Shown here: positions 17,199-21,949 of the stretch, piece after piece
Layout of the letters: each line of letters opens with the position of its first letter
Position numbering within the stretch: the stretch's first letter is position 1
NCBI RefSeq assembly: GCF_002939705.1
Contig: NZ_MDCB01000020.1
Span: 3,255 to 41,599 of the forward strand
Length of the DNA: 38,345 bases
Source of the DNA: Xanthomonas albilineans
GTDB taxonomy: Bacteria > Pseudomonadota > Gammaproteobacteria > Xanthomonadales > Xanthomonadaceae
Direction of reading: 5' to 3'
Notes under the pieces: model-generated
Told to the model about the DNA's origin: nothing
Database searches by the model: none
What the model saw: the letters and a program-made list of their open reading frames with translations, nothing else
Program-made: the position numbers and the translations under genes

Positions 17199-18038
17199 AT
17201 GAAGCTCGCTTCGCGTCCGTTCGCTCTCTTCGTCGCATCCGGCCTGTGTCTGTTGGTGCTGCCCATCGTCGCCGCACAAACGCTTCCCGCCCAGGCGGCG
17301 CCAGCACCGAATACGCCAAGCCAGGTTGCACCCGTCGCGCCAGCCCCGACTGCGGGACAAACGCCAGCGCCAGAGGCGTGGACGCCGCCGCCGCTACAGC
17401 CCTTCGTCGCCACCTACGAAGCGCGCTACAAGGGCCGGTCAGCCGGCGATGCGCGGATGGATGTGGCGCATACCGACGGTCAACAGTGGCGTGTGGATCT
17501 GGACGTGCATGGGCGCAGTGGCTTCGCCAGCATCCTCGGCTTGAACATCGAACAGAGCACGGTGTTTACCGTCCACGACGACCACTACGTCCCGCAAAGC
17601 CAGAGCACGGTCAAAAAGGCACTCTTCTTCGGCAAGAAAGCCACCGGCGTCTACGATTGGAATCAAGGCGTGGCGCGTTGGGACGGCGACCTGAAGGAAG
17701 ACCGCCGGGCACCGATCCGGCTAGAGCCCGGCGACCAGAGCGCGCTGCTGATCAATCTGTCGCTGATGCGCGATGCGCAGCCGGGCAAGACCATGCGCTA
17801 CCGCTTAGTCGACGTGGGCCGCGTCCGCGAGCACATCTACCGTGCTGCCGACCACACCGAAACCGTGCAGGTCGGCGACCTCAGCTACGACGCGCTGCGG
17901 GTTTGGCGAACCAATGGCGGCAAAAATGAGACCATCCTGTGGATCGCCAACGGCGTGCCAACGCCAGTGCGCATCCTGCAACGCGAAGACGGCGAAGATC
18001 GTATCGATCTGCGCCTGACCGAATATCAAGGAGCCTGA
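17199..18038 (+). CDS. DUF3108 exported protein, copy 1
   Basis: A 279-residue protein with a signal peptide (1-26), an Ala/Pro/Thr-rich linker (about 27-65), then a DUF3108 domain: FVATYEARYKGRSAGDA, WRVDLDVHGRSGFAS, GVYDWNQGVARWDGDL, LLINLSLMRDAQPGK and a C-terminal GVPTPVRILQRE. DUF3108 is a predicted periplasmic or outer-membrane beta-rich family without established function. It is the longest of three adjacent paralogues. The next gene starts 2 bp past its stop with the ribosome binding site inside this gene, so the two are co-translated. Confidence 0.85.
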   Translation: MKLASRPFALFVASGLCLLVLPIVAAQTLPAQAAPAPNTPSQVAPVAPAPTAGQTPAPEAWTPPPLQPFVATYEARYKGRSAGDARMDVAHTDGQQWRVDLDVHGRSGFASILGLNIEQSTVFTVHDDHYVPQSQSTVKKALFFGKKATGVYDWNQGVARWDGDLKEDRRAPIRLEPGDQSALLINLSLMRDAQPGKTMRYRLVDVGRVREHIYRAADHTETVQVGDLSYDALRVWRTNGGKNETILWIANGVPTPVRILQREDGEDRIDLRLTEYQGA

Positions 18039-18040
18039 AT

Positions 18041-18724
18041 ATGAAACGTACCGCCCGCCCACTGTCCGCGCTCGCCGCCACTCTACTGGCAATAGTCAGC
18101 CTGCCCGCGTTGGCACTAGAACCTTTCACTGCGGACTACCAAGCCAGCTACATGGGCATGCAGGCCAACGGCGTGATGACCCTGAGCAAAGAAAGCGGCA
18201 ATCGCTGGCGCTACAGTTTGGCGATCAAGAATCAGATTGCCGACCTGAGCCAGGTCACCGTATTCGAAGACAAGGGCGGCCAGTTGCGCCCGCTCAGTAA
18301 CGACGACCGCTCGATGTTCCTGATCAAAAAGAAGGCGGTGACTGCCAAGTACGACTGGAGCAGCGGGCAGGCCACCTGGGCCGGCGACCTCAAGCCGGAT
18401 CGCCAGGGCCCAGTGAAGCTGCAACCCGGCGATATGGATGCACTGCTGATCAACCTGGCGATCGCGCGCGACGTCAACGCCGGCAAGACCCCGAGCTACC
18501 GCATGGTCGAAGAGGGTCGCGCAAAACCGATGGCTTACCACGTCGCAGGCAAGGAAGCGATCACTATCAACGGCAAAACCGAGCAGGCGACCAAAGTCAG
18601 CCGCAGCGACGGTTCCAAGGAAATCGTGGCCTGGATCGTGCCGGACATGCCGGTACCGGCACGCATTCTGCAACGCGAAAACGGCCAGGACGCGCTGGAT
18701 CTGACGATCAAGTCGCTGCACTGA
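18041..18724 (+). CDS. DUF3108 exported protein, copy 2
   Basis: A 227-residue protein. The signal peptide ends ALA at about residue 25, followed directly by the DUF3108 domain (PFTADYQASYMGMQANG ... YDWSSGQATWAGDL ... ALLINLAIARDVNAGK ... VPDMPVPARILQRENGQD). AAGGAG is 8 nt before the ATG. It is colinear without gaps with copy 3, at about half identical residues, and less similar to copy 1. A hairpin follows at 18758. Confidence 0.88.
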   Translation: MKRTARPLSALAATLLAIVSLPALALEPFTADYQASYMGMQANGVMTLSKESGNRWRYSLAIKNQIADLSQVTVFEDKGGQLRPLSNDDRSMFLIKKKAVTAKYDWSSGQATWAGDLKPDRQGPVKLQPGDMDALLINLAIARDVNAGKTPSYRMVEEGRAKPMAYHVAGKEAITINGKTEQATKVSRSDGSKEIVAWIVPDMPVPARILQRENGQDALDLTIKSLH

Positions 18725-18757
18725 GCAGCGACATAGCACGACATAGCACGAATTAAA

Positions 18758-18777
18758 GCGGGCACGCTCGCGCCCGC
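18758..18777. terminator. GC hairpin after DUF3108 copy 2
   Basis: GCGGGC - ACGCTCGC - GCCCGC lies 34 bp past the stop. The T-run is poor on the plus strand (CTTGC), while on the minus strand TTTAATT follows. A second perfect 9-bp stem (CCACCGACC/GGTCGGTGG, 18788-18811) sits just beyond. A direct repeat of GACATAGCAC is found at 18730-18749. Confidence 0.5.
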
Positions 18778-18796
18778 CTTGCATCGGCCACCGACC

Positions 18797-20088: not shown

Positions 20089-20118
20089 AACAAGGCGGAC
20101 CGCATGATCCGCCTTGTT
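20089..20118 (+). terminator. Rho-independent terminator after DUF3108 copy 3
   Basis: A perfect 11-bp stem AACAAGGCGGA / TCCGCCTTGTT with an 8-nt loop, 15 bp after the stop. The 3' arm provides TTGTT and is followed by CCTTA. It is symmetrical enough to act on both strands. Confidence 0.7.
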
Positions 20119-20123
20119 CCTTA

Positions 20124-20263
20124 GAGTGGCTAACAAAACGTCACGAGTCGCTGTCAGGTGTGTGTGGACAGCGCGCAGGAACCGCACTGTAAAGGGGCAC
20201 ATGAGGATTCCGAGCATTGCACGCGACCGTCCGACGGCGACGCAATCGTTTTGTTAGCGACTC
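20124..20263. mobile_element. MITE-like element with 17-bp terminal inverted repeats
   Basis: GAGTGGCTAACAAAACG at 20124-20140 is matched by CGTTTTGTTAGCGACTC at 20247-20263, an inverted repeat with one mismatch in 17. The element is 140 bp and has no coding capacity. The trinucleotides outside the ends are TTA and CTA, so a clean target duplication is not visible. GAGTCGCT recurs inside the left end (20145-20152). It sits directly after the DUF3108 terminator. Confidence 0.6.
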
Positions 20264-20348
20264 CTACTCGCCGCAGCGACAAGACCACACCAAATCCACT
20301 AGCGCCACCACCATGCGCAGGCATACGCCAACGCGATGATGGCATCGC

Positions 20349-20678
20349 TTATGGTTTCTTTGCGTCCTGCACCCCATTCCCCGCCGGCGCAAAGCTAGTG
20401 CGGCAATCCACCCGGATCTGCGCACCGCTGCTGCGCCAATAGAACGTGCGACACTCGCGTGCGCCCTGCTGGGTTCTGGTCACGCCAACGGCGTAGAACG
20501 CCTGCCAGATTTCATCGCGACTGACCTGTCCATCGCCATTCCAATCCATGTCGCGCTCTTCGATGCCCTGGGTGATGGCGATCCCTGCATACCAGGCATA
20601 GCCGACCCATGCCAGCAGCAGCGCCATGATCGCCAGCAACAACTTGCGGCGACGGCTGAAGCGGCCGCTGAGGATCAC
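20349..20678 (-). CDS. Membrane-anchored EF-hand protein downstream of murA
   Basis: A 109-residue protein. A basic start is followed by one transmembrane segment (residues 12-34), and then a canonical EF-hand loop DWNGDGQVSRDE (45-56) with all ligand positions (D, N, D, S, E) present. Two Cys follow (ECRTF, VDCRTS). The ATG overlaps the murA stop (ATGA), so it is translationally coupled to murA. It may be a periplasmic calcium-binding protein; the function is unknown. Confidence 0.75.
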   Translation of the reverse strand: MILSGRFSRRRKLLLAIMALLLAWVGYAWYAGIAITQGIEERDMDWNGDGQVSRDEIWQAFYAVGVTRTQQGARECRTFYWRSSGAQIRVDCRTSFAPAGNGVQDAKKP

Positions 20679-21949
20679 GCGACCCGCCGGATAGACGCGC
20701 CCAACGCCCCCAGCTTTTCCTCGATGTTTTCGTACCCACGATCCAAGTGGTAGATCCGATCGATGGTGGTGTCGCCGTCGGCGACCAGGCCAGCCAGAAT
20801 CAGCGAGGCCGATGCACGCAGATCGGTGGCCATCACCGGCGCGCCACTGAGACGTTCGCTGCCGCGCACGATCGCGGTATGCCCTTCGATCTGAATATCC
20901 GCGCCCAGGCGCAGCAGTTCGTTGACGTGCATGAAACGGTTCTCGAAGATCGTCTCATTGATCACGCCGACACCGTCTGCCACGCAGTTGAGCGCCATAA
21001 ACTGCGCTTGCATGTCTGTCGGGAAGGCTGGATACGGGGCAGTGGTGAGGTTGACCGCACGCGGACGCTTGCCTTGCATGTCCAGGCGGATGAAGTCTAC
21101 GCCGGTCTCGATGCTGGCGCCGGCCTCGGTGAGCTTGTCGAGCACCGCATCGAGCGTGTCGGCGCGCGCACGACGCACGGTGACGCTGCCACCGGTCATC
21201 GCCGCGGCGACCAGGAAGGTGCCGGTTTCGATGCGATCGGGCAGCACCGCGTGACGGCCGCCGGACAAGCGCTCCACGCCCTGCACCACGATCCGCGAGG
21301 TGCCAGCACCCTCGATCCTGGCGCCAAGCGCGATGAGGCAATCGGCCAGGTCGCCGACCTCCGGCTCCATCGCCGCGTTCTCCAGCACCGTGATGCCATC
21401 GGCCAGGGTCGCCGCCATCAGCACGTTCTCGGTGCCGGTGACGCTGACCATGTCGAACACATAGCGCCCTCCCTTGAGCCGACCATTGCTGCTGGCCTTG
21501 ATGTAACCGTTCTCGACGCTGATTTCCGCGCCCAGCGCCTGCAACCCCTTGATATGCTGATCCACCGGCCGCGAACCGATCGCACAGCCGCCGGGCAGGG
21601 AGACTTCCGCCTCGCCGAACTTGGCCAGCAACGGACCCAACACCAGAATCGAGGCGCGCATGGTCCGTACCAGTTCATAGGGCGCGATGTGCTGGTCGAC
21701 CTTGCGTGGATCCACGGTGATCGCGCTGCCGCGCGCCAGCGTGCCTTCATCGATGGTGACTTCCGCACCCAGTTCGCCGAGTAACTTCACCGTGGTGATC
21801 ACGTCGTGCAGTTGCGGCACGTTGGTGATCTCCACTGGCGCATCGGCCAGCAGGGTCGCGCACAGGATCGGCAGCACGGCGTTCTTGGCGCCGGAGATGT
21901 TCACTTCACCGTGCAGCGCATTGCCACCGGTCACTACAATTTTGGCCAT
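20675..21949 (-). CDS. murA: UDP-N-acetylglucosamine 1-carboxyvinyltransferase MurA
   Basis: A 424-residue enzyme that performs the first committed step of peptidoglycan synthesis, transferring enolpyruvate from PEP to UDP-GlcNAc. NISGAKNA places K22 and N23. The loop LPGGCAIGSRPVDQHI carries the active-site Cys (C122, E. coli C115), the residue attacked by fosfomycin, so the enzyme should be of the sensitive type. It lies in the leftward operon ibaG-murA-EF-hand, 46 bp after ibaG. A decayed partial copy lies at 18797-19010. Confidence 0.96.
   Translation of the reverse strand: MAKIVVTGGNALHGEVNISGAKNAVLPILCATLLADAPVEITNVPQLHDVITTVKLLGELGAEVTIDEGTLARGSAITVDPRKVDQHIAPYELVRTMRASILVLGPLLAKFGEAEVSLPGGCAIGSRPVDQHIKGLQALGAEISVENGYIKASSNGRLKGGRYVFDMVSVTGTENVLMAATLADGITVLENAAMEPEVGDLADCLIALGARIEGAGTSRIVVQGVERLSGGRHAVLPDRIETGTFLVAAAMTGGSVTVRRARADTLDAVLDKLTEAGASIETGVDFIRLDMQGKRPRAVNLTTAPYPAFPTDMQAQFMALNCVADGVGVINETIFENRFMHVNELLRLGADIQIEGHTAIVRGSERLSGAPVMATDLRASASLILAGLVADGDTTIDRIYHLDRGYENIEEKLGALGASIRRVA

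What the first reader, a model, noticed from the sequence alone, without database searches (positions are those of the whole stretch)
17916..21022. Fossil of a tandem segmental duplication: DUF3108 gene plus pieces of its neighbours
Copy 2 of DUF3108 (18041-18724) is preceded by the end of copy 1. Copy 3 (19390-20073) is preceded by a decayed copy of the same tail (19264-19389). A decayed murA fragment (18797-19010) follows copy 2, matching murA 20817-21022 in the same direction. The simplest history is a tandem duplication from inside copy 1 to inside murA. Only the extra DUF3108 gene has kept an open frame, while both end pieces decayed. Retention of one gene and decay of its passengers is good evidence for selection on the third DUF3108 copy.
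Basis: partly seen in the sequence, partly recalled or inferred. Interest (0 to 1): 0.8.

Follow-up and report, generated by a model that had tools for sequence, protein, structure and literature searches.

The report
Ancient tandem duplication that kept one gene
In a Xanthomonas bacterium a stretch of chromosome was copied side by side long ago; most of the extra copy decayed into recognisable scraps, but one gene in it, probably for a cell-envelope protein, stayed intact and shows the mark of being preserved by natural selection.

Summary
Between the second and third DUF3108 genes (c2, c3) lie, in the order that a tandem-duplication junction predicts, a broken murA fragment (aligned part 18801-18996 against 20819-21006, 71%, E 7e-25) and a broken copy of the end of c1 (19264-19389). 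A 253-bp AT-rich spacer of unknown origin separates them. Of 20 genomes held for the genus, 17 have two DUF3108 genes and 3 have three; all three carry remains of the murA piece, the spacer and the c1 tail, so they share one event. c3 is under purifying selection (omega 0.21, neutrality rejected at p 1e-19), less strongly than c2 (0.07). The event is old: c3 is only about 50% identical to c2. And the three-gene genomes are not a clade, so c3 was lost or replaced repeatedly (7 or 8 losses on the best trees under strict descent) or moved between lineages; the evidence on this is mixed. The predicted c3 fold is a LolA/YmcC/EipB-like beta half-barrel behind what looks like a signal peptide; a conserved block upstream may hold its promoter. 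This is a well-preserved but ordinary kind of event.

The parts
17199..18038 (+). c1, first DUF3108 gene, 279 aa; its last ~125 bp (17916-18040) are the source of the tail copy
   Evidence: Pfam PF11306 E 6e-17
18041..18724 (+). c2, second DUF3108 gene, 227 aa, 2 bp after c1; present in all 20 genus genomes held
   Evidence: PF11306 E 9e-11
18758..18777 (+). GC-rich hairpin after c2, terminator-like by position; the stretch folds no better than shuffles (z -0.3)
18797..19010 (-). decayed murA fragment (copy of about 20817-21022; aligned core 18801-18996), not a gene
19011..19263 (.). AT-rich spacer (44% GC) at the junction, of unknown origin; found only in the three three-gene genomes of the 20
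19076..19122 (+). most conserved block of the spacer: 41 of 47 bases identical between G000 and G017, 32 of 47 in all three; a 27-base pattern from it occurs once in each of these three genomes and in none of the other 17
19145..19150 (+). invariant TTGACA, candidate -35 of a promoter for c3; -10 unclear, and the promoter scan did not list it (inferred)
19264..19389 (+). decayed copy of the end of c1, joined directly to the start of c3
19390..20073 (+). c3, third DUF3108 gene, 227 aa; signal-peptide-like start, then predicted beta half-barrel; under purifying selection
   Evidence: PF11306 E 2e-8
20088..20119 (+). terminator hairpin of c3 (z -4.2)
20349..20678 (-). small gene with a weak EF-hand match (E 0.014, below the family cut-off); its copy was deleted from the duplicate
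20675..21949 (-). intact murA, source of the fragment
   Evidence: TIGR01072 E 7e-175

Best explanation
A tandem duplication whose ends lay inside c1 and inside murA put a second set of c1 tail, c2, EF-like gene and murA end next to the first. In the upstream unit the EF-like gene and the 3' end of murA were deleted and the rest of the murA piece decayed; in the downstream unit the c1 tail decayed. The c2 copy of the downstream unit (c3) survived as a gene cut off from c1-c2, with its own terminator and, by inference, its own promoter in the junction spacer. Shown here: the remains, their order, one shared event in three genomes, purifying selection on c3. Inferred: c3 encodes an exported periplasmic envelope protein with a LolA/YmcC/EipB-like cradle that differs from c2 in ligand or in timing; and it existed near or before the root of the genus and was lost or replaced in most lineages (this last step is the least certain).
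Confidence: 0.85

Rival explanations
1. The three-gene segment arose in one Xanthomonas lineage and was moved to the other by transfer and homologous recombination, rather than being lost many times. (A rival only for the spread, not for the duplication.)
For: Three-gene genomes are in two distant clades; two changes suffice by Fitch parsimony; spacer plus tail of G017 and of GPE 39 are equally similar to the window; the codon-model path G000-G017 is shorter for c3 than for c2 (2.2 against 3.4); c3 of G017 has GC3 0.67 where its neighbours have 0.87-0.95; single-gene trees of the genus conflict.
Against: dS of c3 between the two clades is within the range of the flanking genes; G017's near relatives G003 and G011 lack c3, so a transfer into G017 would have to be recent, yet its c3 is old; the murA fragment of G017 is as GC-rich (68.8%) as its host's murA (69.5%), as if it had decayed in such a genome.
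Confidence: 0.4
2. c3 is a third copy inherited from a three-gene ancestor of the family, and the murA and c1 scraps came later by an unrelated rearrangement.
For: Third tandem DUF3108 genes exist in four genomes of other genera.
Against: Those third copies form their own clade with starred support, apart from c3; their matches start 20-96 bp after the c2 match and end 30-73 bp before murA, leaving no room for a murA piece; the c1 tail is joined to c3 at its start codon as c1 is to c2.
Confidence: 0.04
3. c3 is a dying duplicate still open by chance.
For: c3 evolves about three times faster at the protein level than c2 (omega 0.21 against 0.072) and has low GC3.
Against: Open in 3 of 3 genomes; omega 1 is rejected on the c3 stem (p 5e-6) and within c3 (p 1e-19), while the pieces beside it are broken.
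Confidence: 0.04
4. The murA fragment is not dead: transcribed rightward it would be antisense to murA mRNA and could tune murA.
For: 103 ungapped bases at 78% identity to murA; it has stayed recognisable in two distant clades.
Against: No closer to its own species' murA than to others (141 of 210 against up to 148 of 210); mostly gone in GPE 39.
Confidence: 0.03

Closest known systems
Tandem segmental duplication followed by retention of one gene (duplication-divergence; named from recall)
   Same: Join point with partial genes from both ends, decay of passengers, one copy kept and faster evolving
   Different: Old, with the passengers' remains still readable; kept in only 3 of 20 species, which are not a clade
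DUF3108 family (Pfam PF11306)
   Same: All three genes pass the family's gathering score; a paper calls DUF3108 a YmcC-fold family and names 3FZX (PMC4364669, one passage seen)
   Different: c3 is the weakest match of the three, and lies outside c1-c2; my profile found no PDB chain at E 1, 3FZX included
EipB / DUF1849 of Brucella (6ntr)
   Different: Different family, 12% identity; function cannot be carried over from the fold alone
LolA / LolB lipoprotein carriers
   Different: No sequence relation found; X. campestris has a LolA-LolB pair of its own (8orn, title)

Membership tests
Tandem segmental duplication | Partial copies of both end genes meet at an internal junction in the predicted order and direction | tested here: met
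Tandem segmental duplication | Relatives keep the single-copy arrangement | tested here: met
   17 of 20 genus genomes
Tandem segmental duplication | The exact breakpoint can be read | tested here: inconclusive
   a 253-bp spacer that matches neither source lies at the junction; old junctions may decay past reading
Retained duplicate under selection | dN/dS below 1 with neutrality rejected | tested here: met
DUF3108 (PF11306) | Score above Pfam gathering cut-off | tested here: met
   34.8 bits against 26 for c3
DUF3108 (PF11306) | YmcC-like beta half-barrel | tested here: inconclusive
LolA/LolB | Carries lipoproteins or lipids | not testable with these tools
   fold resemblance only
EipB/DUF1849 | Sequence membership in the DUF1849 family | tested here: not met
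   only DUF3108 was listed for c3 in the Pfam scan at E 0.1

The most novel reading that the evidence does not exclude
c3 is an old, specialised envelope gene whose presence or absence has been a long-lived variable trait of the genus since near its root: kept, with its own junction-born promoter, in a few lineages (including the genome-eroded X. albilineans group), and removed or replaced by recombination in the others. The duplication junction itself supplied the regulatory DNA.
Probability: 0.22. Interest if true: 0.5.

Novelty: new member of a known kind. Interest (0 to 1): 0.35.

Why it matters
Duplicate genes in bacteria are common, but the way in which they arose is usually erased. Here scraps of both end genes survive, in two distant clades, so the event, the deletion that followed and the kept gene can be read together, with decayed scraps beside a constrained gene as a built-in control. 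The patchy presence makes it testable whether such copies persist by descent with repeated loss or by transfer. It also shows that DUF3108, a family of unknown function, has gained a third tandem gene at least twice in this bacterial family.

Tried and rejected
Spacer origin: compared with murA beyond 21006, c1 before 17920, EF and other stretches in three genomes; 5 of 21 comparisons reached p 0.05 (0.020-0.043), one of them the negative control, so no source is claimed. The spacer plus tail and a pattern from its conserved block occur nowhere else in the 20 genomes. No stable RNA fold in the block (z 0.5).

Placing the murA fragment among murA genes to date the event: inconclusive. Only 6 sites were specific to G000/G016; the window's fragment sides with G000/G016 at 3, with the rest at 2, with neither at 1; the G017 fragment at 1, 4 and 1.

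A relaxed phase right after duplication: not supported; stem and later omega are equal (0.204 and 0.216, p 0.86). That model fixes a tree with c3 outside the genus c2 genes and assumes one base composition, which is not true here.

Trees were wrong, because the loci were not in one orientation; they were discarded and redone. The bootstraps had not settled. PDB sequence searches found nothing relevant (four hits with E 0.96 or worse; none). A model of c2 (pLDDT 59) was made but not searched. Plasmid search: one Xanthomonas sacchari record, 53% identity over 89% of the query, not followed up. Rfam scan of 12 relatives' loci: no match.

Literature: DUF3108 is in 4 papers of the library, none on Xanthomonas by title (passages of two seen). 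A search joining Xanthomonas, duplication, pseudogene and murA gave 11 papers, 10 listed, all on plants by title. (10 of 204 and 10 of 19 papers listed) gave nothing used; led only to the sX9 passage. No description of this locus was found by these searches.

Full report
WHERE IT IS. The window is 63.7% GC and lies on a 41.6-kb contig of a 3.68-Mb assembly. The nearest named relative is Xanthomonas sp. GPE 39, placed in "X. pseudalbilineans", a species close to X. albilineans with an eroded genome and 63% GC (PMC4584326: abstract, outline and section 2.10 seen). The window is therefore probably X. albilineans; no call names it.

WHAT IS THERE. Gene order is purM, purN, c1, c2, [scraps], c3, a gene with a weak EF-hand match (-), murA (-), a bolA-like gene (-), kdsD (purM, purN, bolA and kdsD are named from recall). 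c1, c2 and c3 match DUF3108 above the gathering score. c2 starts 2 bp after c1. The murA fragment, the c1 tail and the c2-c3 match are all strongly significant.

WHY A TANDEM DUPLICATION. A tandem copy of the stretch from inside c1 to inside murA must read: c2, EF, partial murA, then partial c1, c2 copy, EF, murA. The window reads: c2, partial murA, partial c1, c3, EF, murA. Only the first EF copy and the last ~140 bp of the first murA copy are missing. Between partial murA and partial c1 lie 253 bp that match neither; they may be an insertion or remains decayed past recognition. c2 next to murA is the old state: of 27 genomes of other genera whose loci were at hand (of 112 genomes with a c2 relative, plus three), 24 have murA within 1.5 kb after c2 (the three without are G020, G087, and G136, where the contig ends).

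HOW WIDESPREAD. The genus set holds 20 genomes including the window's own; 3 have c3 (G000, G016 = GPE 39, G017) and 17 have two genes. At a strict cut-off (E 1e-90) c3 was found in 2 of 247 genomes drawn from the family (G017, which would pass, was evidently not drawn). All three c2-c3 gaps carry something of the murA piece and of the c1 tail, but GPE 39 keeps only about 86-102 bp of the murA piece, and its tail is seen only by the shuffle test. Spacer plus tail is in 3 of 20 genomes. One event therefore underlies all three.

HOW OLD. c3 is about 50% identical to c2 in protein, while the c2 genes of the 19 other genus genomes are about 85-95% identical to the window's. The murA piece is no closer to the window's own murA (141 of 210) than to others (up to 148 of 210). 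The best tree puts c3 beside all genus c2 (support 62/50, not strong), and later origins are not rejected (AU p 0.071 and 0.076). G000 and G016 are sisters; G017 is deep in another clade of 11, near two-gene G003 and G011. Under one gain with losses only, 7 or 8 losses are needed on the two best topologies, which contain weak nodes. dS of c3 (G000-G016 0.295, G000-G017 0.476, G016-G017 0.614) is like that of c1 (0.291, 0.601, 0.670), c2 (0.291, 0.521, 0.505) and murA (0.310, 0.403, 0.429), so the copies seem to have parted about when the flanks did. Results that pull the other way: in the codon model the neutral path G000-G017 is 2.2 for c3 and 3.4 for c2; GC3 of c3 is 0.67 in G017 against 0.87-0.95 for its neighbours; and the spacer plus tail of G017 and of GPE 39 are equally similar to the window (69% each). 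I hold descent with repeated loss or replacement somewhat more likely than transfer. On re-checking I had left out the codon-model paths; adding them raised the odds of transfer from 0.35 to 0.4 and lowered the novel reading from 0.25 to 0.22.

SELECTION. Pairwise omega of c3 is 0.21, 0.32 and 0.27, with bootstrap upper limits of 0.34-0.49. A branch model fitted on 11 sequences (8 c2, 3 c3) gives 0.072 for c2 and 0.213 for c3; one omega for all is rejected (p 5e-8), omega 1 within c3 is rejected (p 1e-19), omega 1 on the stem is rejected (p 5e-6), and stem and later omega do not differ (p 0.86). The c1 tail has a premature stop in 3 of 3 genomes, and the murA fragment is frameshifted in the window and scattered over frames in G017 (that of GPE 39 was not translated).

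RELATION TO WHAT IS KNOWN. The process is the textbook one. The family has gained a third tandem gene elsewhere too: four genomes of other genera have one right after c2, in a separate clade. No paper found describes this locus.

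Noticed in passing
window 20122-20268: An insertion of about 150 bp between c3 and the EF-like gene, absent from GPE 39 at this place, with near-perfect terminal inverted repeats (GAGT.GCTAACAAAACG) and a long hairpin (z -4.0). The Rfam sRNA family sX9 matches one half (20128-20202, -). At E 1e-5 the element has 40 matches in the window's genome (40 of 56 candidates scored), 28 in GPE 39 and 0-7 in each of the other 18 genomes. sX9, which a review counts among the most abundant annotated sRNAs (PMC9029176, passage seen), may in part be a MITE-like mobile element.
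   Followed up: partly
window 18567-18595 (c2) and 19916-19944 (c3): A 29-bp tract identical between c2 and c3 in the window's genome, where c3 of both other three-gene genomes reads differently (GAGAAT instead of GAGCAG): looks like a small gene conversion from c2 into c3.
   Followed up: partly
L057 2977-6680 (G015): A 3.7-kb insertion between c2 and the EF-like gene in one two-gene genome.
   Followed up: no
L163 4637-5302, L164 5214-5852, L165 5650-6267, L166 4217-4873 (minus strand): An independent third tandem DUF3108 gene in four genomes of other genera, straight after c2 and before murA, with no room for a murA fragment.
   Followed up: yes
window 18864-19148 and 19237-19389: Open frames that annotation may call in error: a 94-aa frame antisense across the murA fragment (no Pfam match at E 0.1), and an upstream in-frame extension that would make c3 278 aa long and bury its signal-peptide-like start (the extension was not scanned).
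   Followed up: partly
c2-EF gaps of the 7-species clade and of G003, G005, G014: By eye these gaps hold GGGATTGGGGAATCG-type repeats, whereas those of G001, G006, G008, G009, G011 and G013 have a plain terminator-like hairpin there: another patchy feature at the same spot.
   Followed up: no
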